Shown here one piece after another: positions 28,738 to 44,999 of a stretch of 64,000 nt of DNA. Position 1 is the first letter of the stretch; each line of letters starts with the position of its first letter. A program made the position numbers and the translations under genes. The DNA is from Xanthomonas euvesicatoria pv. euvesicatoria (lineage in GTDB: Bacteria; Pseudomonadota; Gammaproteobacteria; Xanthomonadales; Xanthomonadaceae), in assembly GCF_020880415.1 (NCBI RefSeq), contig NZ_JAJIUJ010000011.1, forward strand, positions 1 through 64,000, read 5' to 3'. Below the pieces are notes generated by a model. It was not told where the DNA came from, searched no databases, and saw only the letters and a list, made by a program, of their open reading frames with translations.

Positions 28738-29049
28738 ATGAAGGCGCGCACGTCGCGAGTTTTGCCGAGCACCGGGTTTCTACGTGCGGTCCTGGCTGGG
28801 GCAATTCGCTATGTCCTTGTGCGACCGTCGCTGAAACGCCGGTTGATGCGTGCGCTGTCAGCGACACCGGGCCTACTCATGGCGATCAAACGCCTTGGGG
28901 TACGTTTCGGATTTGGCGGCCTGATGGGGCCCGGTCACCTGGCGATCAATGGAAGGGCGAGTGGTCTGGCGTCGCAAGGACGCATGACTGCGCGTGCCGC
29001 CCGGATCTACGAAGATCTGCGTCGGGCGATGGCCGCCAGGGATCGTTGA
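28738..29049 (+). CDS. Small basic protein, C-terminal remnant of a WbdD-like LPS protein
   Basis: 103 aa from the ATG at 28738. It aligns by eye with the C-terminal tail of the 715-aa cap/ruler protein at 34385-36532: IRYVLVRPSLKRRLMRAL here against VRRVLKRPALARALNNWL there, followed by an aligned P...I and, at the end, ARAARIYEDLRRAMAARD against ARGHQIYERMLAIRNGES. Each tail lies directly before a homologous glycosyltransferase gene. The methyltransferase, kinase and coiled-coil parts are absent. Either a degraded remnant left by recombination at the metB border or a surviving short helper protein that binds membrane through its basic helix. Confidence 0.6.
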   Translation: MKARTSRVLPSTGFLRAVLAGAIRYVLVRPSLKRRLMRALSATPGLLMAIKRLGVRFGFGGLMGPGHLAINGRASGLASQGRMTARAARIYEDLRRAMAARDR

Positions 29050-29052
29050 GTC

Positions 29053-32000
29053 GTGCGCATCGCCATCGATCTACAGGCAGCCCAGACCGCCAGCAGGCAT
29101 AGAGGGATCGGGCGTTATTCGCTTGCATTGGCTGAGGCGATGCTGCGTGAGCCGCGCGCGCATGAGTTCTGGTTGGTCATCAATGGCGATATTGCCAGCG
29201 ACGCGATCGATTCGCTTGCTGCTCTGTTGCCACGCGAGCGCGTGGTGGCGTTCCGCACGGCTCAGCCCGTGCATTGGCGCGATCCGGCAAACGCGTGGCG
29301 GCGAACGGCCTCCGAGCATATGCGCGAGTCGTTCCTGCAGGCCTTGCAGCCGGATATCGTCCACGTCACTAGCGTGATCGAGGGTGCGAGCGATGGAGCG
29401 GTGACCTCCATCGGTCGTGGAACGGGGGGGGCACGCACTGCTGCAACCTTGTACGACCTCATCCCGCTCCATGATCCGCGATACATTGCCACCCCATGGG
29501 CCGCAGAATGGTATGCAGATAAGGTCGCCTCGCTGCAGCGGGCCGATGTATTGCTCTCGATCTCCGATTACGTTCGGAACGATGCAATCGAGCGGTTGTC
29601 GGTAGCGCCGGAGCGCGTGGTCAATATCTCGTCTGCGGCCTCGCAGATCTTCAGGCCGATCCATGTCGATAGCGTGCTGCGTGGACGATTTGCGCACGAG
29701 CATGGGATTGTCGGCGGGTACGTGATGTACAGCGGGGCAATGGATCCTCGCAAGAATCTCGAGGCCTTGGTCGCAGCCTATGCGCTGCTGGGTAAAGAGA
29801 AGCAGGAACGTTATCAGCTGGTGGTCACCGGCCACCTGGACGAGTTGGAGCGCGCGCGGCTTGCGCTAGTTGCGCGTCGATTGAAGTTGTCGCCGGACCG
29901 GATCGTCTGTACGGGACACGTGACTGATCAGTCGCTGGTCGAACTGTATTGCGGTGCTGAGCTGTTCGTCCTGCCTTCTTTGCAGGAAGGATTCGGCCTA
30001 CCGTTGCTCGAGGCGATGGCCTGTGGAACCGCCGTGATTGGTGCACGCGCAAGTAGCATTCCGGAGGTGATCGGGCGCGACGATGCCTTGTTCGATCCGA
30101 CCGATCCTGCAGCTATCGCTGGAGCGATGCGGCGCGTTCTGGAAGACACGGACTTTGCGCGCAGCCTCCGCCACCATGGGCCACAACGCGCCCGTGCATT
30201 CTCATGGGCAGGCAGTGCGTCGCGCGCGCTAGATGCGTTCGAGGCCTACGGCCAGTTACATCCGGCCGCTAAGTGGGGCTGGCGAGAGACGAGCGAGGCG
30301 TTGCAGAAAAAGCGTGCTGCGCTCGTCACGGACTTGGCGCACGCATGCGGCAGCCGCGTGCCAGTTGCGGATACGGACCTGGTGCAAGTGGCCGTCGCCA
30401 TGGATGCAAATGAAGATCTGCTGCGCGACGTGTTGCGAAGGCAACATCCGCTCCCCCAGTTCCCCTCGTGGCGTGTGGAAGGGCCGTTTGACAGCAGTTA
30501 TAGCCTCGCCCTGGTAAATCGTGAACTGGCGCGTGCGCTTGATGCGCAGGGGCTGAATGTGCTCTTGCATTCGACCGATGGCTCGGGAGACTTCGACGCC
30601 GATCCAGAATTCCTCGCTTCCGATCAGCAGATTGCGCGGCTTCATTCGCGCGCATCTGGAAGCGCGCCGGTTGCGGCCGACGTGTGCAGCAGGCTGCTGT
30701 ATCCGCCTCGCGTTGCCGACATGGACTCCCGCTTCAACCTGCTGCATGCCTATGCCTGGGAAGAATCGGCCGTGCCCGAGGCTTGGGTTGCCGATTTCAA
30801 CGAGTTCGTCCAAGGCATTTCCGCGCTTTCCACACATGTGGTCAAGGCATTGGTGGACAGTGGGGTCGCGATCCCACTCGGCGTTTGTGGCGCCGGGGTG
30901 GATCACTGGGAATCAATTGCTGCGGCAGAGGGTACTTCGTTGCAGCAACGTGGTTTCAGTTTTCTCCATGTGTCTTCCTGCCTTCCTCGCAAGGGTGTGG
31001 ACGTCCTGTTGCAGTCCTACGGCGATGCCTTCAGCGATCGCGACGACGTATCGCTGATCATCAAGACCTTCGCCAACCCTCAGAACGAAGTTCGTCGTTT
31101 GCTGCATGGCGTACGACGCGCCCGGGCCGACTTTCCTCATGTGATTCTGATCGAGGAAGATCTCGACAGTGCCAGCTTGAAACGTCTTTACTCGCAGTGC
31201 GACGTGATGGTTGCGCCAAGCCGGGCCGAGGGCTTTGGGCTGCCATTGGCAGAGGCGATGTTGTCTGGTCTTGCTGTCATCACCACTGCGTGGGGTGGTC
31301 AATGCGATTTCTGCAACGACCAGACCGCCTGGTTGATTGATTACACATTCGCGCCTGCTGAGACGGTATTTGGGCTCCCTCACTCGGTCTGGGCTGAACC
31401 CTCCCGGACAGGGCTAAGCCGACTTTTGCGCGAAGTGCACCGTCTCCCCGCCGAGCAGCGCAACGAGCGGACCCGTCGTGGTCGACAGCTCCTGCAGGGC
31501 CACTTCAAATGGGCGGATGTGGCGCAGCGGCTCCTGGCGTTTGTTCGCGACCTGTGGGCTCGGCCGATTCGCACTGCCACGCCTCTCATCGCGTGGATTG
31601 CGCCCTCCTCGCCAGCTCAGAGCTCGGGTGGCGTTTTCGCTGAGCTCAGTGGCCTGGCTGGCGAGTTAACGCTATTTGAGATCGACGCATCGATCATATA
31701 TTCAGGCGCGACGATGCCGGCAGGCCTGGTTTCCCTGTCTGAACCGCGCCATTGCCCAACCCGCTCCCTTCCTGTCATCGGCCATCAGCTGACCAATGCG
31801 GTGGTAATCGATTGTCCTCACATCCTGCATCATGGTCATTGGTTCGCTGGCCTGTTGGAGGATCAACTCGATCGTGGTCGGATTGTCGTTGTGCTGTTGC
31901 GTCGAGTTGCCGCATCCGATCCTTGGGAGCCTGCGCTGATTCGTGCACTCAGGCGATGCGATCGCGTCCTGGTCGAGGGGTTTGCCGATCTCAATCTGCT

Positions 32001-32172
32001 CAAGAGCCAGGGCGTCAGTGCGAACACGGCGATCCTCCCCACCCTTGGGGACAACGTGGAGATCCAGCAATCTGCGTTGCGTGTATGGAGCATCGTCCGT
32101 GCACTGCTGTGGCAGCGGCATGCTGATCCTTCGATTTTCTCGCCGCGGCCTGCAGAGGTAGTCTGCTCGTGA
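29053..32172 (+). CDS. Large multi-domain glycosyltransferase (GT4 x2 plus partial third domain), WbdA-like
   Basis: 1039 aa starting at GTG 29053, three bases after the preceding stop. Domain 1 (about 1-400): RGIGRYSLAL, SGAMDPRKNLEAL, and E-x7-E motif EGFGLPLLEAMACG near 312. Domain 2 (about 470-830): VSSCLPRKGVDVLL and EGFGLPLAEAMLSG near 725. Residues about 845-1039 start like a third Rossmann-type GT domain (LIAWIAPSSPAQSSGG; CDRVLVEGFADLN) but stop before any E-x7-E motif. Multi-domain proteins of this kind polymerise mannan or rhamnan O-chains at the cytoplasmic membrane. GC is lower than in the flanks. A G8 tract lies at codons 124-127. The sugar specificity, probably D-rhamnose from GDP-rhamnose, is inferred from gmd/rmd nearby. 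Confidence 0.85.
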   Translation: MRIAIDLQAAQTASRHRGIGRYSLALAEAMLREPRAHEFWLVINGDIASDAIDSLAALLPRERVVAFRTAQPVHWRDPANAWRRTASEHMRESFLQALQPDIVHVTSVIEGASDGAVTSIGRGTGGARTAATLYDLIPLHDPRYIATPWAAEWYADKVASLQRADVLLSISDYVRNDAIERLSVAPERVVNISSAASQIFRPIHVDSVLRGRFAHEHGIVGGYVMYSGAMDPRKNLEALVAAYALLGKEKQERYQLVVTGHLDELERARLALVARRLKLSPDRIVCTGHVTDQSLVELYCGAELFVLPSLQEGFGLPLLEAMACGTAVIGARASSIPEVIGRDDALFDPTDPAAIAGAMRRVLEDTDFARSLRHHGPQRARAFSWAGSASRALDAFEAYGQLHPAAKWGWRETSEALQKKRAALVTDLAHACGSRVPVADTDLVQVAVAMDANEDLLRDVLRRQHPLPQFPSWRVEGPFDSSYSLALVNRELARALDAQGLNVLLHSTDGSGDFDADPEFLASDQQIARLHSRASGSAPVAADVCSRLLYPPRVADMDSRFNLLHAYAWEESAVPEAWVADFNEFVQGISALSTHVVKALVDSGVAIPLGVCGAGVDHWESIAAAEGTSLQQRGFSFLHVSSCLPRKGVDVLLQSYGDAFSDRDDVSLIIKTFANPQNEVRRLLHGVRRARADFPHVILIEEDLDSASLKRLYSQCDVMVAPSRAEGFGLPLAEAMLSGLAVITTAWGGQCDFCNDQTAWLIDYTFAPAETVFGLPHSVWAEPSRTGLSRLLREVHRLPAEQRNERTRRGRQLLQGHFKWADVAQRLLAFVRDLWARPIRTATPLIAWIAPSSPAQSSGGVFAELSGLAGELTLFEIDASIIYSGATMPAGLVSLSEPRHCPTRSLPVIGHQLTNAVVIDCPHILHHGHWFAGLLEDQLDRGRIVVVLLRRVAASDPWEPALIRALRRCDRVLVEGFADLNLLKSQGVSANTAILPTLGDNVEIQQSALRVWSIVRALLWQRHADPSIFSPRPAEVVCS
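29424..29431 (+). repeat. Homopolymer G8 inside the glycosyltransferase coding sequence
   Basis: Eight consecutive G bases encode part of Gly-Thr-Gly-Gly-Ala at codons 124-127. The frame is intact in this sequence. Loss of one G would shift translation to a frame that stops at 29605, removing both E-x7-E motifs. Confidence 0.9.
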
Positions 32173-32254: not shown

Positions 32255-33049
32255 ATGAAAGACCTGCTGCGCCCCCTATGGGTATACCGATACTTCATCT
32301 TCTCTTCGATCAAGAACGAATTGAGGATGCGCTTTATCCAAAGCAAGCTTGGTGCGTTGTGGATGATCATCCATCCGCTGATGCAGGTACTGATCTTCGC
32401 AACGATCCTCTCCGAGGTTCTCGCGGCGAAGCTGCCTGGAATCGACAATAAATATGCCTATGCGCTGTACTTGATGTCTGGAACACTATGCTGGAGCCTG
32501 TTTAACGAGACTATCAATAAATGTGTCTCGCTATTCGTGGAAAACGGAAACCTGATGAAGAAAATGGCATTCCCAAGGATATGCCTTCCCTTCATTGCCG
32601 CAGGAGCAATGCTGGTTAACAACCTTCTGCTGCTGCTCGCCATCTTCATCGTGTTTGCGGTGCTTGGTCATTATCCGGGGTTGCAGGTCCTTTGGTTGCC
32701 GTTCCTGCTGGTGCTGACATTGACCTTCGCGATGTCGTTGGGCTTGTTGCTAGGGGTGTTCAATGTATTCATGCGCGACATCGCCCAAGTCGTGCCAGTG
32801 GTGCTTCAGGCGCTTTTCTGGCTGACGCCCATTGTCTACAACATCAGCATTCTTCCCGAGGACGTCGCCAAGGTCTTTAAACTCAACCCCCTGTTTCCGC
32901 TGGTGACGGCTTATCAGCAGGTACTGCTTTACGGCACAACACCGGATTGGCGCTCATTGATGCCGCTATGTGCGGCCACTGCGATACTGGGCCTGATGTC
33001 GTTAGTGGTGTTCCGACGTGCCAGTCAAGAAATGGTGGATGCGCTATGA
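32255..33049 (+). CDS. wzm: O-antigen ABC transporter permease Wzm
   Basis: 264 aa ABC-2 type permease with about six membrane segments. The N-terminal RYFIFSSIKNELRMRFIQSKLGALWMI is the cytoplasmic entry typical of Wzm/KpsM-like exporters. SLGLLLGVFNVFMRDIAQVV and QALFWLTPIVYN are characteristic of polysaccharide exporters. Exports undecaprenyl-PP-linked O-antigen across the inner membrane with Wzt. Its stop overlaps the wzt start (ATGA). 82 bp follow the glycosyltransferase gene with no obvious promoter, so it is probably the same transcript. Confidence 0.93.
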   Translation: MKDLLRPLWVYRYFIFSSIKNELRMRFIQSKLGALWMIIHPLMQVLIFATILSEVLAAKLPGIDNKYAYALYLMSGTLCWSLFNETINKCVSLFVENGNLMKKMAFPRICLPFIAAGAMLVNNLLLLLAIFIVFAVLGHYPGLQVLWLPFLLVLTLTFAMSLGLLLGVFNVFMRDIAQVVPVVLQALFWLTPIVYNISILPEDVAKVFKLNPLFPLVTAYQQVLLYGTTPDWRSLMPLCAATAILGLMSLVVFRRASQEMVDAL

Positions 33050-34332
33050 GCGATGTCGTAATGCGTGTTGAGGACGTTGGCAAGGCCTATCGGGTCTGGA
33101 GCAGTCAATGGTTGCGGGCGGCCAGTTGGTTCGGTGCTCCAGTGCAGGCGCGCGAGGAACATTGGATCCTGCGCAATGTGTCGTTTTCGATCAAGACCGG
33201 CGAATCCGTTGGCGTAGTGGGGCGCAACGGTGCGGGTAAAAGTACGCTGCTGAAACTGATCACCGGAACCGTGCAGCCTACTGAAGGCGTCATTGCCCGG
33301 TCGGGGCGAATCGCGGCGATCCTGGAGCTGGGCATGGGATTCAACCCGGACCTGACAGGCAGGCAGAATGCGTACCATTCAGCAGGTTTGATGGGGTACT
33401 CTCAACAGCAAATCGATGCGGCCATGCCCGGCATCGAGCGGTTCGCCGAGGTTGGAGAATACTTCGATACGCCAGTGCGGACCTACTCCAGCGGAATGCA
33501 GGTGCGGGTGGCATTCGCCGTAGCGACGGCGTTCCGCCCCGACGTGTTGATCGTCGATGAGGCGCTTTCTGTGGGAGACGCCTATTTTCAGGCGAAGTGC
33601 TTCAAGCGCGTCCAGGAATTCAAGGAGCTGGGAACCACATTGATCCTGGTGAGTCATGCAGTGGGTGACATCGTCAAGCACTGCGAGCGCGTGCTATTCA
33701 TCAAAGATGGCGGCGTCTATGCCGACGGCCCGGCGCGTGAAGTTTCCAATCTTTATCTGGACGAGCTTTTTGGGCGAAAGAGCAGTCCTGATTCTGCGCG
33801 TGCGGACGTTCCGATCAAAGCGATCCCAGGCGAAAGCATCGATGACGTATTCCACACTCGCCCTTTGTATAACCGCAACGAGCATCGTTGGGGTCAGGGC
33901 GGAGCGAAGATCGTCGACTATGCGGTGACCAGTAGTGGCGAGCGTTTTCCCGCGCGTATCGACAGCGGTGCGGTCACGAAATTCCACATGAAGATCTTTT
34001 TCGAGCGTGACTTTGACAACGTGGTCCCAGGTCTGTTGTTGAAGACGCTCGAAGGGCTGTTCCTCTATGGGACAAATTCATTTTTGGCGAGCGACGGGCG
34101 GAAGATGCTTTCCCCACGCGCAGGCGATGTGATTACCTGCCATTTCGCATTGCCGCTGAGCGTCAATGAGGGGCATTACATGGTGTCGTTGGGGGTGTCG
34201 AGCGGCGATCCGCTCGGCGAGTTGGTGCCCCTGGACAGGCGCTATGATTCCATCTTGCTGGATGTCAGCCGTCCCATGCAGTTCTGGGGCATCGTTGACT
34301 TGAATGCCGAATTTTCCGCCGACGTTTCTTGA
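33046..34332 (+). CDS. wzt: O-antigen ABC transporter ATPase Wzt with C-terminal glycan-binding extension
   Basis: 428 aa. The nucleotide-binding domain occupies about 1-240: Walker A GRNGAGKST near 60-68, signature YSSGMQVRVAFA near 147, Walker B VLIVDEALSVGDA near 167, then H-loop LVSHA. Residues about 260-428 are a C-terminal extension (KIVDYAVTSSGERFP, PLSVNEGHYMVSLGVSSGD, FWGIVDLNAEF) of the type that, in E. coli O8/O9a Wzt, recognises the modified non-reducing end of the chain before export. Its presence fits with the cap-adding protein encoded immediately downstream. Confidence 0.94.
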   Translation: MSDVVMRVEDVGKAYRVWSSQWLRAASWFGAPVQAREEHWILRNVSFSIKTGESVGVVGRNGAGKSTLLKLITGTVQPTEGVIARSGRIAAILELGMGFNPDLTGRQNAYHSAGLMGYSQQQIDAAMPGIERFAEVGEYFDTPVRTYSSGMQVRVAFAVATAFRPDVLIVDEALSVGDAYFQAKCFKRVQEFKELGTTLILVSHAVGDIVKHCERVLFIKDGGVYADGPAREVSNLYLDELFGRKSSPDSARADVPIKAIPGESIDDVFHTRPLYNRNEHRWGQGGAKIVDYAVTSSGERFPARIDSGAVTKFHMKIFFERDFDNVVPGLLLKTLEGLFLYGTNSFLASDGRKMLSPRAGDVITCHFALPLSVNEGHYMVSLGVSSGDPLGELVPLDRRYDSILLDVSRPMQFWGIVDLNAEFSADVS

Positions 34333-34384: not shown

Positions 34385-36532
34385 ATGACGCATTCCGTTT
34401 CCCCGGGCAACAGTTCTATCGCCGATCTCGTTGCTGCGTTACCCGAAAAGTATCAGCCCATTTTTGGCCATCCAGAAATTTCCGACGGTAGCTCCCGTGG
34501 TTGCGAGGACCGCCTGAAGGTCATCCTCGATGTGGTCGACCACCTGCGGATGGCATTGGGGCGTCCGATTCGGGTGCTCGATCTTGGATGCGCGCAAGGC
34601 TATTTCTCCCTCAACCTGGCGGCGCGGGGGGCCATCGTCCATGGTGCGGATTTTCTTGATCGCAATGTAGCGGTCTGCCGGGCGCTGGCGGAAGAGCAGG
34701 GCTTCGTGGCCGCCACCTTCGAATGTGCCCGGATCGAGGACATCGTCGGGGGGCTGGAGGTTGGCAGATATGATCTCGTCCTCGGGCTGAGCGTCTTTCA
34801 TCACCTGATTCATGAGCATGGCCTGGAGCCTATTGTCGGGTTGATTGGGCAGATCGACGCCTGCATCGCAGTTGGCATATACGAGCTTGCTGTGCGGGAA
34901 GAGCCGCTGTATTGGGGTGCATCGCAGCCGGGTGATCCCGCGCAATTGCTGCAGCGCTATGCGTTTCTCCGAGTGCTGGCTCATCAGGGAACGCATCTGT
35001 CAGGTATCGCCAGGCCCTTGTATTTCGCAAGCAGCCGTTACTGGCTGCTTGGTAATGACTTCCGCGAATTTCTCTCGTGGCGCACGGAATCACACGCCCA
35101 TGCGATGAACAGTCACGCAGGGACGCGACGCTACTACTTTGCCGATGGCGTGATTCTCAAGCAGATGTCATTGGTTGAGACGTCGAGGAAGAAGATCAAC
35201 CTCGCAGAGTACGAGAACGAAGTGAGCTTCTTGCGTGATCCGCCTCCTGGGGTGGCTGTTCCGGCTCTGATGCACAACCTGGAGGACAGTCGCGATGTAT
35301 GGATTCTGCGAGAGCAGCTGCCAGGGCGCCTGCTTTCGGAGATGATCCAAGACAAGGCCCCGTATTCCTACGAGGAGATAGCCGATTCCATCATTGCGCA
35401 ACTTGTTGCGCTGGAGGCGGTCGGGCTTTACCACAACGATCTGCGCTGTTGGAACCTGCTTGTCAACGATAATGGCACTGCCACCTTTATCGACTATGGT
35501 GCCGTCTCGACTAGCGCAGTTGATTGCGTCTGGCCTGATGATCTGCTTCTTTCGCTTTTGATAACGCTGCGGGAATTGGTGCAGGGGCAGATCGCACCGC
35601 CTTTGCCCGTTCGCCGCCCGCTCCTCGATATCTCCATGCTGCCGGCTCGCTACCGGGTCGCGTTCTATACGATATTCAATCGCCCAAGTGGGGAATGGAC
35701 GTTTCGCGCTTTGAGGGAGGCGATCGGCCAAGAAGATGGGGAGGCAGAGGGAGCCGGCTGGGTATGGCTGTTGCGAAAGCAGGAGCGTGCACTTCTCATC
35801 TATGAGCAGGCCATCCGGGCGGCCGAAGCACGCTCGGCCGAAGTCCAGACCAAGCTCAATGAGTCGCTGAGTAACGCGCATCACTGGTATCTGCGCGCAA
35901 ATGAGCGCGAAGAGGCCATCGACAAGCTGAACAGCGAGATCAATGGGCTGAAAGACACTATCGGCGAGTTGCATCATCTGCAGCTGTCGGGCACCTCGAA
36001 CATCCATGACCTCCGCCGGAGATTGGAAACTTCAGGTGCCAGCTTCACGGTCGTCCGTGAGCAGCTGGATGAACTCCGCATGCAGCTCGATTCTTCACTT
36101 CAAAACGCCCACCACTGGTGCCTGCGTGCCAGCACTGCCGAGCAAAACCTGCACGATATCCAGACTAGCGCGTCATGGCGTCTGACGCGCCCTTTAAGAG
36201 GGATGGCGCGTTTGGTGAGGTCGCCTCGCGCATCGCTGAAGCGGATCCTACTTGCTCTGGTTCGCCGAGTTCTCAAGCGCCCGGCGCTTGCCCGTGCGCT
36301 AAACAACTGGTTACGTATGGCGCCTTCTGTCCATGCCAGGATCAGGGGCGCCGTCGCGGCGGATATGGGGATTGATCGCGTGATTCAGCCAGTGATGGAG
36401 GATCGGCCGCGCCCCGACCAGGTTGTGGATGTCACCGTGCTTGCCGAGCCGGTCGCGGCAGCGAGGCTGTCTGCCCGTGGTCATCAGATCTATGAGCGCA
36501 TGTTGGCCATACGCAATGGGGAGTCTGCTTAA
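34385..36532 (+). CDS. WbdD-like O-chain terminator: methyltransferase, kinase, coiled-coil ruler
   Basis: 715 aa from the ATG at 34385. Residues about 40-230: SAM methyltransferase with motif I VLDLGCAQGYF (64-74). Residues about 245-450: atypical protein-kinase fold with Lys259 (GVILKQ), catalytic loop His350-Asn-Asp352-Leu-Arg-Cys-Trp-Asn357 and metal-binding Asp370 in FIDYG. Residues about 463-595: charged coiled coil containing two copies of an L-x2-SL-x-NAHHW-x-LRA unit (491-505 and 568-582). Residues 596-660 are strongly basic and amphipathic (SWRLTRPLRGMARLVRSP), suggesting membrane contact. The same order as E. coli O9a WbdD, which caps the chain with methyl phosphate and sets its length through the coiled coil. 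Its stop overlaps the next start by one base. Confidence 0.85.
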   Translation: MTHSVSPGNSSIADLVAALPEKYQPIFGHPEISDGSSRGCEDRLKVILDVVDHLRMALGRPIRVLDLGCAQGYFSLNLAARGAIVHGADFLDRNVAVCRALAEEQGFVAATFECARIEDIVGGLEVGRYDLVLGLSVFHHLIHEHGLEPIVGLIGQIDACIAVGIYELAVREEPLYWGASQPGDPAQLLQRYAFLRVLAHQGTHLSGIARPLYFASSRYWLLGNDFREFLSWRTESHAHAMNSHAGTRRYYFADGVILKQMSLVETSRKKINLAEYENEVSFLRDPPPGVAVPALMHNLEDSRDVWILREQLPGRLLSEMIQDKAPYSYEEIADSIIAQLVALEAVGLYHNDLRCWNLLVNDNGTATFIDYGAVSTSAVDCVWPDDLLLSLLITLRELVQGQIAPPLPVRRPLLDISMLPARYRVAFYTIFNRPSGEWTFRALREAIGQEDGEAEGAGWVWLLRKQERALLIYEQAIRAAEARSAEVQTKLNESLSNAHHWYLRANEREEAIDKLNSEINGLKDTIGELHHLQLSGTSNIHDLRRRLETSGASFTVVREQLDELRMQLDSSLQNAHHWCLRASTAEQNLHDIQTSASWRLTRPLRGMARLVRSPRASLKRILLALVRRVLKRPALARALNNWLRMAPSVHARIRGAVAADMGIDRVIQPVMEDRPRPDQVVDVTVLAEPVAAARLSARGHQIYERMLAIRNGESA

Positions 36533-39048
36533 TGCGCATCGTGATGGATCTTCAGGGAGCACAGTCGGAGAGTCGTTTCCGGGGTATCGGGCGCTATAGC
36601 CTGGCGTTAGCGCTTACAGTAGCCCGCGATGCACGGGGGCACGATATCCATCTCGCATTGAACGGTGCATTTCCGGAGGCAGTGAAGGATATTCGGACTG
36701 CATTTAAGGGGCTCATTCCGCAGAGCAATATCCATGTATGGCATGTGCCTCTTCCCGTGCATGCCTGCGATACTGGAAATAGCACGCGGTGCAGTCATGC
36801 CGAGATCGTGCGGGAGGCAACGCTGGCTTCATTGAAGCCCGATATCGTGCATGTATCCAGTCTGTTTGAAGGTTACGGCGACAACGCATTGACCAGCATT
36901 GGTCGTGTCTTCCAGATCCCGACCGTGGTGACGATGTATGACTTGATTCCGATGATGAACCCAGAGGTTTATCTCAATCACGACCCAGTCTATGCCAAAG
37001 CTTACGCGGAGAAATTTTCTTTTTTGCAGCGGGCGGATGCTGTCTTAGCGATATCGGAAAGTTCAGCTGACGAGGCGCGCCGGGTTGGGAAATTTGGCAG
37101 CGATAAGGTCTTCAACATCTCTGCAGGATGCGATGCTGTCTTCTCACAGTTGGAAATCCAGCATCCGGCGCGTCGCTTGGTCCGCGCCAAGTTCGGGATC
37201 GAAGGCGAATTCTTTCTCTATACCGGTGGAGCGGATCGGCGCAAGAATCTGAACCGCTTGATCGATGCATATGCGGCACTCCCCGTGGCAACGCGCAAGA
37301 TTGCCCGTCTGGTCATGGCCGGACGCATGCCTGCGTCGTTGGTGGACGATCTCAATCGCGTCGCATTGGAGCGGGGGCTGCGAGCGGACGAGATCATCTT
37401 TACCGGTTATGTTTCAGACGAAGAGCTGGTTGCGCTGTATAACGAATGCCGCTTCTTCGTGTTTCCGTCCTGGCACGAGGGATTTGGTTTGCCGGTATTG
37501 GAAGCAATGGCATGTGGTGCAGCGGTCATTGCAGCCAACGCTTCAAGTATTCCGGAGATTGCCACGGAGCCGGCCATGCTGTTTGATCCGTATGACACTG
37601 CCGAGATGTCCGAGCGGATCCGCTGGATGCTTGAGGATGATGCAGCCGTAGCGGAAGCTCGCGCTTTTTCGGAGCATCGGGCTACTGCGTTCTCTTGGGA
37701 GAGAAGCGCAACAGCGTTTCTCGACGCTTGCGAGAGCGTGCATCTGCGATCCTTGCCGCGCACCGATGCTGGTCAGGCACTCAATATAGCCATGGCCGCA
37801 CTTGGCCGGAAAAGTACGCAAACGCTCGCAGTGGTTGCAGCAGCAGATGCGTTGGACCGCAGCATAGCGCCAGAGGAGCGCATGCTCATGCTCGACGTTA
37901 CCGAGCTGGCCGCGCACGATCGTGGGACGGGTATCCAGCGCGTGACGCGCGCTATCTCGAATGAGTGGCTGCGCCGGCCGCCGCATGGCTACCGCATCCA
38001 GCTCGTCAGGTTGGATCGCGAGTCACGTCGCTATGTGTGCGCCAATGCCTACGCCGGCCACCTTCTAGGTCAGGATTTCGGTGAGGATGCGGCACTGGTG
38101 TGTCACGCGGGCGACGTCTTCGTCGGCCTGGATCTGGTGGGACACGCTGTTGATCTGGCCTCCGATTGGTTCGATTACTTTCATGTTGCAGGGGTAGTGA
38201 TCAATTTCGTGGTCTATGACATCCTTCCTGTGCGGAATCCACAATGGTGGCCCGGGCCCGGCGGGCAGCACCACGAGCGCTGGCTGCGAGGTATCGTTTC
38301 CGTATCGGATCGGTTGATCTGTATTTCCCAGGCCGTTGCAGATGATGTGACTGGATGGATGCTGGAAAATGGAATCGGCAAGCAGCCGGACGTCGCATGG
38401 TTCCACCTTGGTGCTGATCTTGAAGGAAGCGCTCCCAGTCGGGGCATGCCGGATCATGCCGACGCGCTTCTCTCTCGCCTGAAGCAGGTGAGGAGTTTCT
38501 TGATGGTGGGCACGCTCGAACCCCGCAAGGGGTATGCCGGCGTGTTGGCCGCATTCGAGTATCTATGGTCTGCAGGGCAGGATATCGCCTTGGTGATCGT
38601 CGGCAAGAAAGGCTGGATGGTGGACGAGCTTTGCGAAAAGTTGGAAACGCATCCCCAGCTTCATCGCAATCTGTTTTGGCTCAGCTCCGCCAGCGACGAG
38701 CTCTTGGAAAAGCTCTACCAAGCCTGCACCTGCCTCATCGCCGCCTCTGAGGGCGAAGGTTTTGGCTTGCCACTGATCGAGGCGGGACAGCGACGACTGC
38801 CAATTCTGGCCCGCGATATCCCGGTGTTCCGCGAGGTTGCTGGCGAGCATGCAACTTACTTCGCAGGGCACACGCCGGTGGAGATAGCGAGCGCCATCGA
38901 AAAATGGCTCGAACTGCATACACAGAACGCGCATCCGCGGACTGACGAGCTGTCCTGGTTGACCTGGGCGCAGAGCGCCGATCAGCTTGCCGCCGCACTT
39001 CTGAAGCCGGCCGCCAGTCTGGTATATCCGAGCCAGGAGGCCAATTGA
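36532..39048 (+). CDS. Two-domain GT4 glycosyltransferase, WbdA/WbdB-like
   Basis: 838 aa, ATG at 36532 sharing one base with the preceding stop (TAATG). Domain 1 (1-400) is paralogous to domain 1 of the 1039-aa protein: RGIGRYSLALALTV, TSIGRVFQIP, YDLIPMMNP, GGADRRKNLNRL, EGFGLPVLEAMACG near 315. Domain 2 (about 450-830): LMLDVTELAAHDRGTGIQR, VGTLEPRKGYAGVL, EGEGFGLPLIEAGQ near 740. Expected to transfer deoxyhexose or mannose residues from GDP-sugar during O-chain assembly, on the membrane with the WbdD-like protein. Number and linkage of the sugars cannot be read from sequence. Confidence 0.87.
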   Translation: MRIVMDLQGAQSESRFRGIGRYSLALALTVARDARGHDIHLALNGAFPEAVKDIRTAFKGLIPQSNIHVWHVPLPVHACDTGNSTRCSHAEIVREATLASLKPDIVHVSSLFEGYGDNALTSIGRVFQIPTVVTMYDLIPMMNPEVYLNHDPVYAKAYAEKFSFLQRADAVLAISESSADEARRVGKFGSDKVFNISAGCDAVFSQLEIQHPARRLVRAKFGIEGEFFLYTGGADRRKNLNRLIDAYAALPVATRKIARLVMAGRMPASLVDDLNRVALERGLRADEIIFTGYVSDEELVALYNECRFFVFPSWHEGFGLPVLEAMACGAAVIAANASSIPEIATEPAMLFDPYDTAEMSERIRWMLEDDAAVAEARAFSEHRATAFSWERSATAFLDACESVHLRSLPRTDAGQALNIAMAALGRKSTQTLAVVAAADALDRSIAPEERMLMLDVTELAAHDRGTGIQRVTRAISNEWLRRPPHGYRIQLVRLDRESRRYVCANAYAGHLLGQDFGEDAALVCHAGDVFVGLDLVGHAVDLASDWFDYFHVAGVVINFVVYDILPVRNPQWWPGPGGQHHERWLRGIVSVSDRLICISQAVADDVTGWMLENGIGKQPDVAWFHLGADLEGSAPSRGMPDHADALLSRLKQVRSFLMVGTLEPRKGYAGVLAAFEYLWSAGQDIALVIVGKKGWMVDELCEKLETHPQLHRNLFWLSSASDELLEKLYQACTCLIAASEGEGFGLPLIEAGQRRLPILARDIPVFREVAGEHATYFAGHTPVEIASAIEKWLELHTQNAHPRTDELSWLTWAQSADQLAAALLKPAASLVYPSQEAN

Positions 39049-39154: not shown

Positions 39155-40195
39155 ATGACTAACAAGATTGCAATCATTACCGGTATCACCGGACAGGACG
39201 GTGCTTACCTGACCGAGCTGTTGCTTGGCAAGGGTTACAAGGTGTATGGCACATATCGACGGACCAGTTCCGTCAACTTCTGGCGCCTCGAGGAGGTTGG
39301 CGTCGCGAAACATCCGAATCTGGAGTTGGTGGAGTATGACCTCACGGATCTGGGGACGACGATCGCGATGGTCCAGAAGATCCAGCCCGACGAGATCTAC
39401 AATCTCGCTGCCCAGAGCTTCGTCGGAGTCAGTTTCGATCAGCCGACAACGACAGCGCAGATTACCGGTATCGGCGCACTGCACCTGCTTGAGGCGATTC
39501 GTCTGGTGAACCCGAAGATCCGGTTCTACCAGGCATCGACTTCGGAGATGTTCGGTAAGGTCCAGGCAGTCCCTCAAAAGGAAGACACGCCGTTTTGGCC
39601 ACGTAGCCCATACGGCGTTGCTAAGCTGTATGCCCACTGGATTACGGTGAATTATCGCGAGAGCTACGATATCTTCGGATCCAGCGGAATTCTGTTCAAC
39701 CACGAAAGTCCACTGCGCGGCCGGGAATTCGTTACCCGCAAGATCACCGACTCGGTGGCTAAGATCAAGCTCGGGCTGCTGGACTGCATGGAGTTGGGAA
39801 ACCTGGACGCCAAGCGTGACTGGGGCTTTGCGCGCGAGTATGTGGAAGGTATGTGGCGGATGCTGCAAGCCGAGGAGCCGGACACTTTCGTGCTCGCGAC
39901 AAATCGCACCGAAACCGTGCGCGATTTTGTCGGCATGGCGTTTAAGGGCGCAGGCATCGACGTCGAGTTCCGTGGAGAGGACGCTGAAGAGACTGCGGTG
40001 GACATTGCCACCGGCAAGGTGGTCATGCGCATCAACTCGAAGTTCCACCGCCCTGCAGAAGTGGAGCTGCTGATCGGCGATCCCGAAAAGGCGGCCCGTA
40101 TCCTCGGCTGGAAGCCTGAAACCACGCTGGAGCAGCTGTGCCAGATGATGGTCGAGGCTGATCTGAAGAGGAACGAGCGTGGCTTCTCATTCTGA
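39155..40195 (+). CDS. gmd: GDP-mannose 4,6-dehydratase
   Basis: 346 aa extended SDR. NADP-binding [15 protein letters not shown], catalytic STSEMFGKV with Tyr/Lys in [11 protein letters not shown], and substrate loop [17 protein letters not shown]. Converts GDP-D-mannose to GDP-4-keto-6-deoxymannose. Overlaps rmd by 17 bp, which implies coupled expression. Follows the 838-aa glycosyltransferase by 106 bp; a TATGAT hexamer at 39061-39066 could be a weak internal promoter. Confidence 0.96.
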
Positions 40196-41114
40196 CCTGA
40201 CGGGTAAGCGGGTTCTGATAAGCGGAGCGTCCGGGTTCACCGGGCGCTACATGGCCCAGCAGCTCAAGGAACAGGGCTGCACGGTCATCGGCGTCGGAAC
40301 GCGTTCGGATGGTACCGGCACGGCTGGTACCGACGAGTTCTGGCCGATGGATCTGCGCGACGCTGCCGACGTCGCTCGCATCGTTGCGCATGCCCAAGCC
40401 GACTACGTTGTACATCTAGCGGCAGTGGCCTTTGTCGGTCACGGGGATGCTGACGATTTTTATCGTGTCAATCTGCTCGGCACCCGGAACCTCTTGCAGG
40501 CGTTGGCCGCAAGCCGCCACCGTCCGGAAAGGGTGCTGATCGCCAGCAGTGCCAATGTCTACGGCAATGCAACTGAGGGCGTGATCGACGAGGCGGTCAC
40601 ACCCGCGCCCGCGAACGACTACGCGGTGAGCAAGCTCGCCATGGAATATGTCGCCAGCTTGTGGCGCGAGCGGCTATCCCTGGTGATTGCCCGCCCTTTT
40701 AACTATACCGGGGTCGGTCAGGCGACCAATTTCCTGATTCCCAAGATCGTTTCCCATTTCGCATCTCATGCCTCTTCCATCGAGTTGGGCAACACCGAAG
40801 TGTGGCGCGATTTCGGCGATGTCAGATCGGTCGTGCTGGCTTACCGGAAGCTCCTGCAGGCACCGGCGGCCGAAGGGCAGATCGTCAATGTGTGTTCGGG
40901 TGTCGCCAGTTCGCTGGGGGACATCATCGGGATCTGCTCGAAAATCACTGGCCACGACATTGACGTCCAGGTGAACCCTGCATTCGTTCGAGAGAATGAA
41001 GTCAAGAAGTTGCTTGGCAGCAATGCCAGATTGCAGGAGCTGATCGGCGATTGGCAGAGTCTTGCGTTAGAGGACACGCTGCGCTGGATGCTCGAAGCTA
41101 GCTGCCAGCACTAG
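40179..41114 (+). CDS. rmd: GDP-4-keto-6-deoxy-D-mannose reductase (GDP-D-rhamnose synthase)
   Basis: 311 aa, GTG start at 40179 inside the end of gmd with AGAGGAAC upstream. SDR with [39 protein letters not shown] and [15 protein letters not shown]. The last motif and the length favour Rmd, which yields GDP-D-rhamnose, over GDP-fucose synthase, which also epimerises and carries different residues. D-rhamnose is a known backbone sugar of Xanthomonas O-antigens. Last gene of the rightward LPS operon; followed by a hairpin. Confidence 0.9.
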
Positions 41115-41298: not shown

Positions 41299-43551
41299 TT
41301 ATCTGTCGCAATCGGCCTTGCAGATTTCAAGACTTGTCAGCCCGAAGGCAAGCAGCCGTTGGTCTGCGGATATGCCGATCTTAGCGGGAGAGACCGGTGT
41401 TTCGTAGTTCAGGACGATATGCACCACTTCACCCGGCTGGCGGCTTGTGACGGGAATCCGTAGTGCCAGCGGCAGGGCTTGTGCTGGAGTGACTAGGGTG
41501 TCGAGCGCTTGAACGCCGTTGACCGAGGCACGGATGCGAAGCGCTTGATGGCGGCCAGCCAGAAACGGGTTACCACGCAAAATTACTGTTGTTCTGCCGA
41601 CTGTTGTCGGGGTGACACGATAGCTCAGCGATGAGCTTGTACCTGCGGACCAGACGCCCCATGCCTCATCTGACGACCAGCCTTGTGTCAGTAGGCTGCG
41701 CAGCGAGGGGAGGGTTATGCTGGTATCTACGGCAGGCTCGGCGAACGCCGCCTCTTTGGCAGCTTCGATGCTTGCAGGCTTCGCCCCCCCTGGGAGACGA
41801 AAGACCACAACCGCTCCATCTTCGCGAGTCATTGCTGGCGGCGCGCCAATGGCCTGTGTCCATTCAGCAATGACTTGCGCTCCCTGGTCGGCATAACCGC
41901 GCTTGTCGATATAGATAGCGTCGAAGCCGAAGCGACCGATTGCCTGGAGCTGCGCTGCGGCGGGTTGGGTTTCCAGATTCCGGTAGAACAGGTCGCCCTC
42001 ACGGCCTTTCATGCCTGCGTAGCTCCACTTTAAGTGCTGCGAGTGGACGAATCCCACCGCAAGGTCATATGTGTGCAAGGCATTCTTAGGCGGCACTTCC
42101 GGAAAGGGCATGTAGGGCAACTGGTAAACTGCTGCACCGAAAGGGAGGGCAGCTTCAATGCTGCGGATGAAACGCTTGTCCTGCTCGTACGCAGTGCGCG
42201 CGCTGGACTGACACTGGCCGCACACAGCTGAGGTCTGATCCCAGATGCCGATGACCAGCATGCTGGCCGCAGCGATCGAGGCAATGGTCATGTGGTGTCG
42301 ACGCCCCACCTTGTCGGATAACATCTGCACTGCAATGGCCACCGCAGCCAGCGTGCTAAATGTGATGAAGATGCTGGCCCGATTCCAGCCGCGGATGGAG
42401 GGCGATACAAGGTGCGCGAAGAGTGAGCCAAGTCCGCCGATGGTCATGAATGCCAGAAGGACGCCGGAGAGAATCGCCAACAGGGCAATGCGTTCTTCAT
42501 TGCGCTGCTCGGCCAGGCGCGCGAACGTGACCAGCGCCAGGATGGCAAGGCCGATGGAACCGATCAGGCCCAGGGAGGCGGTCGTGTTCTCGTTGATCAA
42601 CGGTGTGCTGGCCATGTACCGGGCCGTGACATTGGCCAGCTTGGGTAGCCTGTGGTCGGGGCGCGGTAGGATCAACTGCATCAACTTCACGCCGTAGATC
42701 TCGGACTCTGCTGGCGCGCGAGCAGCGACTTCCGGGTTGTGACCGTTGATCTGATCGTTGATCACATTGGGTGCGACATTTGCCAGCGTACCGAGCGCGA
42801 GGAAGAAAATGACGGGTGCTGCGAGGCGGCTGATGGACGTCCAGTTCTTCTGGAACAGCGCCATGAGGCAAGCCGTTCCAATCAGGATCAGACCGAATGC
42901 CGTGTAGTAAACGCCGAAACAGCTCAGGATCAGGTACAGCGCGGCAAGCGTGATCTTACGTGCGGGCCGCGCGCTCCAGAAATCCAGCGATACATCGGCG
43001 CGCACAATTCGAATCGCAAGCATGAAGTAGATCGGGACGCCGAAATACCAGGTGTAGAAGATGTGCTGCAACCGCAGGAAATGGAACGGTGCCAACGTAA
43101 AGAGTATGGCAGTGGTAAAGGACAGCAAACGACCGACGCGCAGCCAGCGCATTACCCAATATGCCGTCAGAAAGTTCGCGGCAAAACCCAGCAGGAAGAA
43201 CAGATTGATTGCGGCGGCACTGCTGCCGGTCAGCATGCCGGCGAGCTTCAGGAACAGAAAGCTGCCGGAATCTGCTCCAGGATAATCCAGGAAGGAGGAG
43301 CCGAATGGGAATCCGCTGCGGTCGTTCTCAAAAATCCATCCTTCCATCGCTCGCTGCGTCAGCCAGAGGCTGCTCAAGGCGTCGCCCTTATACGAGAATG
43401 GGTAATCCAGCAAGGACAAGAGGCCAGCCGGCCAGCCGACCAGCAGGAGGCTGCCCGCCACGACGGACATAACGGCACCTAACAGCAGGGGTAGCCATTC
43501 GGCCTTGATCAGGGGACTGGCCGGCGCCGTGGCAGGAAATAGGGTAATCAT
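41299..43551 (-). CDS. wxcO: Large multi-pass membrane protein WxcO-like, putative GT-C side-chain transferase
   Basis: 750 aa from the ATG at 43551; an in-frame GTG at 43560 is the alternative, and a stop three bases before that GTG bars anything longer. About 11-12 membrane segments in the first 460 residues, then about 290 residues in a soluble, probably periplasmic, domain. The first external loop has charged SYKGDALSSLWLTQRA, resembling the acidic loop of GT-C enzymes. Position and size match wxcO of the Xanthomonas LPS locus. With the GtrB-like WxcL and GtrA-like WxcN, a role as the serotype-specific GtrC-type enzyme that adds a sugar branch to the O-chain in the periplasm is a reasonable inference. 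Confidence 0.65.
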   Translation of the reverse strand: MITLFPATAPASPLIKAEWLPLLLGAVMSVVAGSLLLVGWPAGLLSLLDYPFSYKGDALSSLWLTQRAMEGWIFENDRSGFPFGSSFLDYPGADSGSFLFLKLAGMLTGSSAAAINLFFLLGFAANFLTAYWVMRWLRVGRLLSFTTAILFTLAPFHFLRLQHIFYTWYFGVPIYFMLAIRIVRADVSLDFWSARPARKITLAALYLILSCFGVYYTAFGLILIGTACLMALFQKNWTSISRLAAPVIFFLALGTLANVAPNVINDQINGHNPEVAARAPAESEIYGVKLMQLILPRPDHRLPKLANVTARYMASTPLINENTTASLGLIGSIGLAILALVTFARLAEQRNEERIALLAILSGVLLAFMTIGGLGSLFAHLVSPSIRGWNRASIFITFSTLAAVAIAVQMLSDKVGRRHHMTIASIAAASMLVIGIWDQTSAVCGQCQSSARTAYEQDKRFIRSIEAALPFGAAVYQLPYMPFPEVPPKNALHTYDLAVGFVHSQHLKWSYAGMKGREGDLFYRNLETQPAAAQLQAIGRFGFDAIYIDKRGYADQGAQVIAEWTQAIGAPPAMTREDGAVVVFRLPGGAKPASIEAAKEAAFAEPAVDTSITLPSLRSLLTQGWSSDEAWGVWSAGTSSSLSYRVTPTTVGRTTVILRGNPFLAGRHQALRIRASVNGVQALDTLVTPAQALPLALRIPVTSRQPGEVVHIVLNYETPVSPAKIGISADQRLLAFGLTSLEICKADCDR

Positions 43552-43592
43552 GTAATCCACGATTCAAGAATGGATGCGCCGCGCCAACGGGA

Positions 43593-43645: not shown

Positions 43646-44083
43646 TCAGCCTTGGTGGGAGTCTGGCTTGGGAGGCTGCAACAATAACTTGCTCAGGATA
43701 AACGACACTGGCAGCGTGACAACGATGGAGATCAGCGGGCCGACTGCCGCCGGCACGCCTAGATGCCCTACGCTGATTTTCAGCGCCAGGGCTCCAACTG
43801 CGTAGGTCACCAGATAGATGACCGGAAACGCTGCAAATTTCAACCAGCTGTGTTGAGCACGAAAGACGTAACGGGTGTTGATTAGATAACTGAGCAATAT
43901 GCCTGCACAGAAACTCGCAAGATAAGCCCACTGGTAATACATAAAATCAAGGAGCACCCAGTACAGTGCCAGGGTCAGGCCCGTGTTGAGTGCTCCGCCC
44001 AACAGGAAGCGTAGGGCCACAGCGAACAATGACCGATGCCGCCGAAGCAGGGCATCGGCATGTGGGGACTCATCCGCCCGCAT
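43646..44083 (-). CDS. wxcN: GtrA-family membrane protein (WxcN-like)
   Basis: 145 aa from the ATG at 44083, which overlaps the end of wxcM by 14 bp. Four membrane segments: [74 protein letters not shown]. The segment [15 protein letters not shown] between segments two and three is the GtrA signature. GtrA-like proteins are thought to flip polyprenyl-phosphate sugars across the inner membrane. It sits between the sugar-making enzymes and the presumed side-chain transferase. Confidence 0.85.
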
Positions 44084-44999
44084 TCGCCAGACTCTTGAAG
44101 GACGCGTAATCGCGAATGTACTCATCGGTGTCGTAGGGCTCGGACGCAAACACCAGCAGCACGGCATCTTTGGAGTACTTGTACTGTGTGCCCCAGATCA
44201 TCGGCGGCAGATGGATGCCCTGGTTCGGTGAGTTGAGTTCGACATCGATGCGGCGCGCACCGTCGTCTGCCAGCACCCTGACCGAACCGGAAACGCATAC
44301 GAGAAACTGATGGCAGCGCTTGTGCGCATGCTCGCCACGGGTCTCCTGGGTGGGTACACCGTAGACAAGAAAGTACCGCCGCGCATTGAAGGGAAGGAAG
44401 CTGTCGAAGTCTCCGACTGACAGAGATCCGCGCATGTCGGAAAAGCTGGGCATCTGGTAAAGCTTGACGCCGGGAACGATGGTGTCGGTGATGCCCTGAA
44501 CGACGGGCAGTGAAGCCGCTTGATCCGCGTCCTTGTCGGATACATAACCCACAATGCGCGCAGGATTGCCAACTACGATGGCATTGGGCGGCACCGAGCG
44601 CGTGACCACTGCACCTGCGCCAATCATCGCGCCACTGCCGATAGTGGTGCCAGCCAGGATTGTCGCGTTGGCCCCAATCGACGCGCCTGATTCCACTAAA
44701 GTGCCGAGAAATTTCTCGGGATATACCCGGCTGCGGGGGAACAGATCGTTGGTGAAGGTTGCATTAGGGCCTACGAAGACATCGTCTTCCAAGCGCACGC
44801 CATCCCATAGTTGCACGCCGCACTTGACCGTCACACGATCGCCGATCACGACGTCGGACTCAATGAATACGCCATCGCAGATGTTGCAGTCACGACCAAG
44901 GCGAGCGCCTGGCAGTACGTGGGCAAATGCCCAGACGCGGGTGCCCTCGCCAATGGTGGCGCTCTCGCAAAGAGCGTTGGGGTGCACGAAATAGCTCAC
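44070..44999 (-). CDS. wxcM: Bifunctional dTDP-sugar N-acyltransferase/3,4-ketoisomerase WxcM
   Basis: 309 aa, GTG start at 44999 overlapping the wxcL stop (GTGA). Residues about 1-150 are a left-handed beta-helix of hexapeptide repeats ([40 protein letters not shown]), as in N-acetyltransferases of 3-amino sugars. Residues about 170-305 are a cupin of the FdtA/QdtA type ([32 protein letters not shown]). The isomerase moves the keto group of dTDP-4-keto-6-deoxyglucose to C3, WxcK aminates it, and the acyltransferase N-acylates it. Product dTDP-Fuc3NAc or dTDP-Qui3NAc; sequence alone does not decide. Confidence 0.9.

What the first reader, a model, noticed from the sequence alone, without database searches (positions are those of the whole stretch)
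34385..36532. WbdD-like chain terminator with a visible coiled-coil ruler in a Xanthomonas O-antigen locus
One protein carries a SAM methyltransferase (DLGCAQG), a kinase (HNDLRCWN, DYG), a coiled coil with two NAHHW units 77 residues apart, and a basic amphipathic tail. Next to it is a Wzt with a C-terminal extension. This is the E. coli O9a arrangement for capping with methyl phosphate, measuring chain length and recognising the cap before export. It predicts a length-controlled, capped D-rhamnan. The duplicated NAHHW unit suggests the ruler length has changed by internal duplication.
Basis: partly seen in the sequence, partly recalled or inferred. Interest (0 to 1): 0.7.

Follow-up and report, generated by a model that had tools for sequence, protein, structure and literature searches.

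The report
Modular O-antigen capping enzyme, plus adaptor
The gene looks like a Xanthomonas version of the enzyme that stops and measures the sugar chains coating the cell, and comparison with relatives suggests that its two ends are swappable modules, one of which also occurs as a separate small gene in the same cluster.

Summary
Window 34385-36532 (+) encodes 715 aa matching WbdD crystal structures over methyltransferase and kinase (E 4e-107). A 3.5-periodic coil and a basic tail follow. The Wzt C-terminal domain upstream matches structure 2r5o (E 3e-59; recalled as O9a Wzt-C). The next gene is a WbdA-like GT (39.6% over 803 aa), then gmd and rmd: the O9a layout. Xanthomonas WxcB was already compared with WbdD in print (PMC4878081), so the protein is a new member of a known kind. 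'Duplicated NAHHW, so the ruler changed' fails: the copies bracket the coil and are old.

New here: (1) relatives carry a WbdD or an FkbM methyltransferase head, and the Wzt C-terminal domain follows the head in 35 of 35 loci. (2) The tail goes with the WbdA-like polymerase. (3) A stand-alone tail gene, 28738-29049, lies directly before the other dual-GT4 gene and is under purifying selection. (4) Sister species differ in coil length by 7, 35 and 77 residues, but also by 38.

Linkage could explain (1) and (2). Cap, ruler and docking are inferred; no structure model could be made.

The parts
28738..29049 (+). Stand-alone tail peptide, 103 aa, no Pfam family; homologous to the part of the terminator tail after the SWR motif; directly upstream of GT1039 and in the same frame, one stop codon between
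   Evidence: Tail-profile match E 8.9e-6 in the whole genome, profile built without free tails; profile-profile 97%, E 4e-11; dN 0.11 / dS 0.82 against X. phaseoli, differences by codon position 21/7/38; no Pfam hit. No confident direct match to the enterobacterial tail (8%)
29053..32172 (+). GT1039, dual GT4 glycosyltransferase, N-half 41% identical to that of GT838
   Evidence: Pfam Glycos_transf_1, two stretches; BLASTP
32255..33049 (+). wzm, ABC export permease
   Evidence: Pfam ABC2_membrane E 7e-25
33046..34332 (+). wzt, ABC export ATPase with C-terminal domain (about 33832-34329), inferred cap recognition
   Evidence: ABC_tran E 3.5e-23 and Wzt_C E 2e-24; 2r5o E 2.6e-59; 55% identical to the Wzt C-terminal domain of a plasmid-borne K. 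pneumoniae locus
34385..36532 (+). wbdD/wxcB-type chain terminator, 715 aa
   Evidence: phmmer to WbdD structures E 4.1e-107
34385..35035 (+). Methyltransferase domain (aa 1-217, border by alignment with O9a 1-210); Y23, R38, C40, R43, H139, H140, H204, R210 conserved
35036..35755 (+). Kinase domain (about aa 218-457); E275, D352, W356 conserved; O9a Y230, R270, D350 replaced by H237, I271, N351
35756..36172 (+). Coiled coil, aa 458-596, inferred ruler; NAHHW at 35873-35887 and 36104-36118
   Evidence: period 3.5; motifs
36167..36199 (+). SASWRLTRPLR motif ending the coil; S-x-SW[RK]-x-T form shared with enterobacterial WbdD
36200..36529 (+). Basic C-terminal tail, inferred polymerase dock
   Evidence: homologous to the enterobacterial WbdD tail, hhalign 97%, E 7e-11 over 64 columns that include SWR; goes with the polymerase
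36532..39048 (+). GT838, WbdA-like dual GT4, inferred polymerase
   Evidence: 39.6% identity over 803 aa to the gene after wbdD in a plasmid-borne K. pneumoniae locus, taken as WbdA from its place
39155..40195 (+). gmd, GDP-mannose 4,6-dehydratase
   Evidence: TIGR01472 471.8 bits, cutoff 415
40179..41114 (+). rmd-like reductase, inferred GDP-D-rhamnose synthesis
   Evidence: Pfam Epimerase; next to gmd in the 20 loci; specificity inferred

Best explanation
The protein is a WbdD-type O-antigen chain terminator of the WxcB lineage in an ABC-transporter O-antigen locus of the E. coli O9a kind. Inferred mechanism: the tail holds the WbdA-like polymerase GT838 at the membrane; the coil keeps the catalytic head at a set distance; a D-rhamnan chain long enough to reach the head is phosphorylated and methylated at its tip; the Wzt C-terminal domain recognises that tip and the chain is exported. 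In this family the machine behaves as two exchangeable pairs on either side of a coil: head with Wzt C-terminal domain, and tail with polymerase. Shown: homology, catalytic residues, coil periodicity, gene order, covariation. Inferred: cap chemistry, ruler function, docking.
For: WbdD structures matched at E 4e-107. O9a residues Y16, R31, C33, R36, H132, H133, H197, R203 and kinase E274, D351, W355 kept (roles from PMC3482155). Wzt_C domain matching 2r5o at E 3e-59. WbdA-like gene next door. Coil period 3.5. Tail homologous to the enterobacterial WbdD tail; PMC3482155 (passages) says the WbdD C-terminal region recruits WbdA. WbdA-like gene nearby: 27 of 27 loci with full tail, 2 of 20 with short or no tail, 2 further loci fused. 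Wzt C-terminal domain nearest to the same head type: 35 of 35. Xcc wxcB Tn5 mutant: O-antigen absent from LPS while 0.56 of the wild-type rhamnose remains, one measurement (PMC4878081 passages), as expected if uncapped polymer is made but not exported.
Against: O9a Y230, whose Y230F change abolished activity in vitro, is H here (H in 50 of 68 aligned relatives), and R270, D350, F194, D195 also differ. Pocket residues N34 and Q35 are acidic (E, D) here; in O9a the triple change N34D, Q35E, H197E cut methylation below 10% (PMC3482155), though H197 is kept here. An X. euvesicatoria wxcB mutant showed no LPS change on gels, and polar effects were not excluded for the Xcc mutant (PMC4878081). In Xcc, loss of the branches raised rhamnose content, so length is not set by the ruler alone (same paper). 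Both covarying pairs are neighbours on the DNA, so linkage could give the pattern without contact. 13 of the 20 short-tail loci are one clade, and on the head tree the tail label changes only 3 times. L104 has a WbdA-like gene but no recognised tail; outside the family 6 of 13 polymerase hits have no recognised tail upstream.
Confidence: 0.85

Rival explanations
1. The terminator adds a different cap: methyl only, phosphate only, or methyl-phosphate at another position. Fold and role are the same, chemistry differs.
For: Kinase acceptor-side residues differ from O9a (Y230H, R270I, D350N), as do pocket residues N34E, Q35D, F194Q, D195G; the O8 WbdD is a simple methyltransferase (PMC3482155 passages).
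Against: Catalytic D351, E274, W355 and methyltransferase Y16, H132, H133, R203 are kept; the Wzt C-terminal domain is closest to 2r5o. Y/H at position 230 does not track gmd+rmd: 5 of 11 Y loci have both genes.
Confidence: 0.3
2. Head/Wzt-domain and tail/polymerase covariation is only linkage: neighbouring DNA moves together and the parts need not touch.
For: The Wzt C-terminal domain is encoded directly before the head and the tail directly before the polymerase. Few independent changes. Tail similarity also correlates, less strongly, with Wzm similarity (0.31 against 0.44 for the GT).
Against: Cassette borders would fall inside genes. In 5 of 5 loci with two tails compared, those tails are unlike (similarity 0.06-0.11), while FkbM-headed L042/L043 tails are closest to free tails and their GTs to a free-tail GT. 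L151 combines an FkbM head and FkbM-type Wzt domain with a tail and GT closest to those of WbdD loci. The WbdD C-terminal region is reported to recruit WbdA (PMC3482155).
Confidence: 0.3
3. The free tail gene is a decaying remnant of a terminator whose head was lost, or a leader peptide, not an adaptor.
For: It lacks coil and head. In the window and in L052, L060, L161 it is in frame with the GT and separated by one stop codon. No Pfam family, no plasmid relative. No confident direct match to the enterobacterial tail.
Against: dN/dS about 0.14 (window vs X. phaseoli) and 0.17 (L159 vs L160); 7 of 7 free tails in the 41 loci lie directly before a dual-GT4 gene.
Confidence: 0.3
4. The protein is a WbdD-like enzyme of another pathway, not O-antigen.
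For: Some WbdD-like heads lie in loci where no Wzm/Wzt match was found (e.g. L077, L086, L106).
Against: Here it sits between wzt and a WbdA-like gene, followed by gmd and rmd.
Confidence: 0.03

Closest known systems
WbdD of E. coli O9a
   Same: Methyltransferase then kinase, key catalytic residues, coil, C-terminal tail, Wzt with C-terminal domain, WbdA-like gene next door
   Different: Acceptor-side and pocket residues differ; gmd+rmd point to rhamnan, not mannan; a plasmid-borne K. pneumoniae relative (L062) has a coil of 150 against 175 here; a free tail gene and a second dual-GT4 enzyme are present
WxcB of Xanthomonas campestris pv. campestris (PMC4878081)
   Same: Reported similarity to the WbdD methyltransferase and kinase domains; role in rhamnan O-antigen
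   Different: The 12 intact short-tail Xanthomonas proteins compared here have heads about 53% identical to this one, a longer coil, a short tail and no WbdA-like gene found within about 8 kb; which type the Xcc B100 protein is was not tested
ORF6 of K. pneumoniae O7 and WbbB of O12 (PMC11231755 passages)
   Same: Terminator at one end of a coil, polymerase at the other
   Different: Polymerase fused to the coil protein; the O7 kinase is described as quite different from WbdD. Fused WbdD relatives L074 and L076 seen here resemble this layout
WbdD of E. coli O8 (PMC3482155 passages)
   Same: Chain-terminating methyltransferase of an ABC-exported O-antigen
   Different: No kinase; the FkbM-headed relatives found here are methyltransferases of Pfam PF05050; no comparison with the O8 protein was run

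Membership tests
WbdD chain terminators | N-terminal SAM methyltransferase with the WbdD active-site set (Y16, H132, H133, R203) | tested here: met
WbdD chain terminators | Kinase domain with catalytic D351 and supporting E274, W355 | tested here: met
WbdD chain terminators | Kinase acceptor residues Y230 and R270 as in O9a | tested here: not met
   H237 and I271; H at 230 is family-wide (50 of 68), so I read this as marking O9a rather than the family
WbdD chain terminators | C-terminal coiled coil | tested here: met
   period 3.5 over aa 458-596, none of 2000 shuffles as strong; sequence only
WbdD chain terminators | Parallel trimer with the coil acting as ruler | not testable with these tools
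   no structure model could be made
WbdD chain terminators | Tail that recruits WbdA | tested here: inconclusive
   homology to the enterobacterial tail and covariation with the polymerase; binding not testable
WbdD chain terminators | Terminal methyl-phosphate on the glycan | not testable with these tools
   needs NMR or mass spectrometry
O9a-type ABC-dependent O-antigen locus | wzm-wzt(with C-terminal domain)-wbdD-wbdA in order | tested here: met
   the order is that of the K. pneumoniae plasmid locus L062, where wbdA is named from its place
D-rhamnan O-antigen locus | gmd and rmd present | tested here: met
   gmd TIGR01472 above cutoff; rmd by similarity and position only

The most novel reading that the evidence does not exclude
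O-antigen chain terminators of this family are two-code modular machines: the catalytic head is matched to the Wzt C-terminal domain and the tail to the polymerase, with the coil as an exchangeable spacer. The 103-aa free tail gene (28738-29049) would be a headless adaptor that docks a second polymerase (GT1039) at the membrane without terminating it, an O-antigen assembly part for which the searches made here (listings and some passages seen) turned up no description.
Probability: 0.4. Interest if true: 0.65.

Novelty: new variant of a known kind. Interest (0 to 1): 0.55.

Why it matters
It gives the protein family whose function PMC4878081 calls 'still obscure' (WxcB) a concrete, testable role. 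It offers natural pairs of closely related proteins with different coil lengths, so the ruler idea, tested in E. coli O9a, can be checked against variation that evolution already made. If head and tail codes are real, polysaccharide cap and length could be predicted from sequence across many bacteria, and the free tail would be a small handle on how polymerases are held at the membrane.

Tried and rejected
Rejected: recent NAHHW duplication as a ruler change. Rejected: Y230-to-H as a mannan/rhamnan switch; among 51 ABC-type loci, H with gmd+rmd 26, H without 12, Y with 5, Y without 6, N without 2. Rejected: NAHHW as a general signature; an H-x-W-like motif lies within 34 residues before SWR in 14 of 22 full-tail terminators of the family, 3 of 18 outside it and 0 of 8 short-tail ones. 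Weak: heptad-sized length steps. In 12 intact short-tail Xanthomonas proteins the coil measures 277 (six), 312 (three), 305, 200 and 315. The differences 77, 35 and 7 are multiples of 7; 38 is not, L050 against L051 is one gap of 115, and L058 (sister genus) and the full-tail group (gaps of 52 and 1) do not follow it.

Led nowhere: WbdD in viral contigs (14 stretches matched a pattern, none a relative); WbdD in the class sample (own genome only, 1 of 369); free tail in plasmids (no match); promoter and terminator scans (counts below shuffle means). Paper searches with FkbM terms: 0 papers, and 20 listed of which no title or abstract start describes such a terminator.

Scripts: one search failed on a regular expression; one search ended in an index error after printing the results used. 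One search's motif search missed the SWR motif in some proteins; one search used a wider one.

Full report
What was checked. The ORF at 34385-36532 (+) is real and contains the motifs described: DLGCAQG, HNDLRCWN, DYG, NAHHW at aa 497 and 574, and a basic tail. phmmer against solved structures gives WbdD (4uw0) at E 4.1e-107 over query 13-486, and three further WbdD sequences at 1e-106 to 8.6e-106; that these are the O9a protein rests on PMC3482155 and recall. Pfam gives methyltransferase domains above cut-off and kinase domains below it. The Wzt upstream carries a Wzt_C domain whose closest solved structure is 2r5o, E 2.6e-59. The call names 2r5o only as a putative ATP-binding component; that it is Wzt-C of E. 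coli O9a is recalled.

Locus. The order is free tail gene, GT1039, wzm, wzt, wbdD, GT838, gmd, rmd. GT838 is 39.6% identical over 803 aa to the gene after wbdD in a plasmid-borne K. pneumoniae locus. That record names WbdD but calls the next gene mannosylfructose-phosphate synthase; I take it as WbdA from its place. The closest named relative is Xanthomonas phaseoli pv. phaseoli ATCC 49119 (93%), in which wzm, wbdD and the GT are split into several frames in the assembly; I left them so.

What is already known. PMC4878081 (passages and Background read) names wxcB, notes its similarity to WbdD and calls its function 'still obscure'. Its Tn5 mutant lacks O-antigen on LPS while rhamnose remains at 0.56 of wild type, from one measurement; polar effects were not excluded, and an X. 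euvesicatoria mutant showed no LPS change on gels. PMC3482155 (passages and one section read) gives the catalytic residues and says that the C-terminal region recruits WbdA and that wbdD mutants make but do not export the polymer. PMC5082667 and PMC11231755 (passages) describe the coil as a ruler whose length affects chain length. The two primary papers looked up for these points were not held.

Catalytic residues. In an alignment with 68 relatives, some of them one gene fetched twice, the window keeps methyltransferase residues Y16, R31, C33, R36, H132, H133, H197 and R203 and kinase residues E274, D351 and W355. Y230, R270 and D350 become H, I and N; pocket residues N34, Q35, F194 and D195 become E, D, Q and G. 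H at 230 is family-wide (50 of 68) and does not track rhamnan genes. The O9a changes Y230F and N34D/Q35E/H197E impaired activity (PMC3482155), so these differences count against identical chemistry. I expect an active enzyme with an altered acceptor site.

The coil and NAHHW. Coil length was measured from the residue aligned to kinase P420 to the S-x-SWR motif: 175 in the window, 150 in the K. pneumoniae plasmid protein. In 12 intact short-tail Xanthomonas proteins it is 277 in six, 312 in three, and 305, 200 and 315 once each. The coils of X. nasturtii (200) and X. cucurbitae (277) are 92% identical apart from one 77-residue gap; L045 and L049 differ by one 7-residue gap; L044 and L045, only 50% identical, by 35 in two gaps. 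The +38 of L051 and the single 115-residue gap between L050 and L051 break the heptad pattern, so I call it suggestive only. The NAHHW copies are positional and each matches its counterpart in other species better than its own partner.

Heads are exchangeable. I fetched regions from 20 of those 169 genomes, chosen for strength and variety, and compared them with the window and 20 earlier regions, 41 loci in all. Terminators with a full tail carry a WbdD head or an FkbM methyltransferase head (PF05050 in 4 of 4 scanned). Xanthomonas genomes G006 and G012 have the FkbM form and no WbdD match at 1e-20.

Head and Wzt domain. Among 35 loci with an identified head and a complete Wzt C-terminal domain (18 WbdD, 17 FkbM; some are near-copies), the domain is closest to one from the same head type in 35 of 35. 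Median identity is 67.7% within WbdD loci, 47.8% within FkbM loci and 25% across, the last for the 212 of 306 pairs that align. Controls: ATPase part 85% and 70% within, 65% across; Wzm 78% and 56% within, 66% across. L051, whose Wzt is split in the data, and L157, with neither head, were left out.

Tail and polymerase. Of 61 WbdD proteins in distinct loci, 49 have a Wzt match and at least 3 kb downstream. With a full tail (95-160 aa after the motif) a WbdA-like gene (at least 180 bits) is nearby in 27 of 27. With a short or no tail it is in 2 of 20: L096, which BLAST links to the enterobacterial tail, and L104, a true exception; 13 of these 20 are one Xanthomonadaceae clade. Two more are single polypeptides that continue into extra domains; L074 was scanned and has GT domains. 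In the 41 family loci, 30 of 34 ORFs with the tail core (E below 1e-3) are directly followed by a GT4 N-half homologue; two of the four misses are pieces of the broken X. phaseoli gene and two are large multidomain proteins with partial tail matches. Of SWR-only ORFs, 0 of 11 are followed by one.

Those loci had been chosen by tail or WbdD, so I also started from the polymerase N-half: 49 of 390 family genomes match (at most 4 candidates scored per genome), 58 hits usable after leaving out the two pieces of the broken G027 gene. Of hits at 39% identity or more, 33 of 39 have a tail directly upstream, 3 a partial one and 3 none by profile. 13 of those 39 had contributed to the main profile; of the other 26, 20 have a tail, 3 a partial one and 3 none. 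Seven free tails also built the second profile but are found by the main one too. Of hits at 37% or less, 2 of 19 have a tail. Outside the family, 7 of 13 hits have a recognisable tail upstream and 6 do not.

Tail similarity follows GT similarity over 29 tails (Spearman 0.44, Mantel p 0.001; 0.40 after removing Wzm similarity), more than it follows Wzm (0.31; 0.24 after removing the GT), with misfits such as L153, L163 and L166. L042/L043, with FkbM heads, have tails closest to free tails, and L151 pairs an FkbM head and Wzt domain with a tail and GT closest to those of WbdD loci.

The free tail gene. Window 28738-29049 encodes 103 aa matching the part of the tail after SWR (97%), directly before GT1039. 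The free-tail profile does not confidently match the enterobacterial tail directly (8%). The 41 loci hold 7 such genes, all directly before a dual-GT4 gene. Between window and X. phaseoli the differences by codon position are 21, 7 and 38, dN 0.11, dS 0.82; between L159 and L160 dN 0.03, dS 0.18. It is under purifying selection and is most simply read as a headless dock, though this is untested.

Limits. Cap, ruler and docking are inferred. The covarying pairs are adjacent on the DNA, so linkage alone could produce the pattern. On the head tree of 48 rows the tail label changes only 3 times; of 3 independent pairs the GT goes the same way in 1.8 on average and never the other way, too few for a test. 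No structure model was obtained.

Verdict. The protein is a new member of a known kind. The exchangeable pairing and the free tail gene make the system a new variant of that kind, worth a direct binding test.

Noticed in passing
   Followed up: no
L074 (Afipia MAG) and L076 (Oricola cellulosilytica): WbdD head, coil and SWR motif continue in one polypeptide of 1604 and 1859 aa; L074 has GT domains, a natural terminator-polymerase fusion; L076 was not scanned.
   Followed up: partly
L157 9050-10465: A sulfotransferase-like head (PF13469, below its cut-off) on a coil ending in SWRYTRPLR, near weak Wzm and Wzt homologues (30% and 48%): possibly a sulphate-capping relative.
   Followed up: no
window 43646-47055, minus strand: Genes that look like FucNAc nucleotide-sugar and branch-transfer genes, as in the Xcc wxc cluster; named from sequence and recall only.
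   Followed up: no
window 41299-43560, minus strand: A 753-aa protein without NCBIfam family but 75-91% identical in six of the 20 fetched loci, all of the short-tail kind.
   Followed up: no
L216 and L217 (genomes G247, G258): A short ORF end resembling a divergent free tail lies directly before the second GT4 homologue but is missed by the profiles.
   Followed up: no
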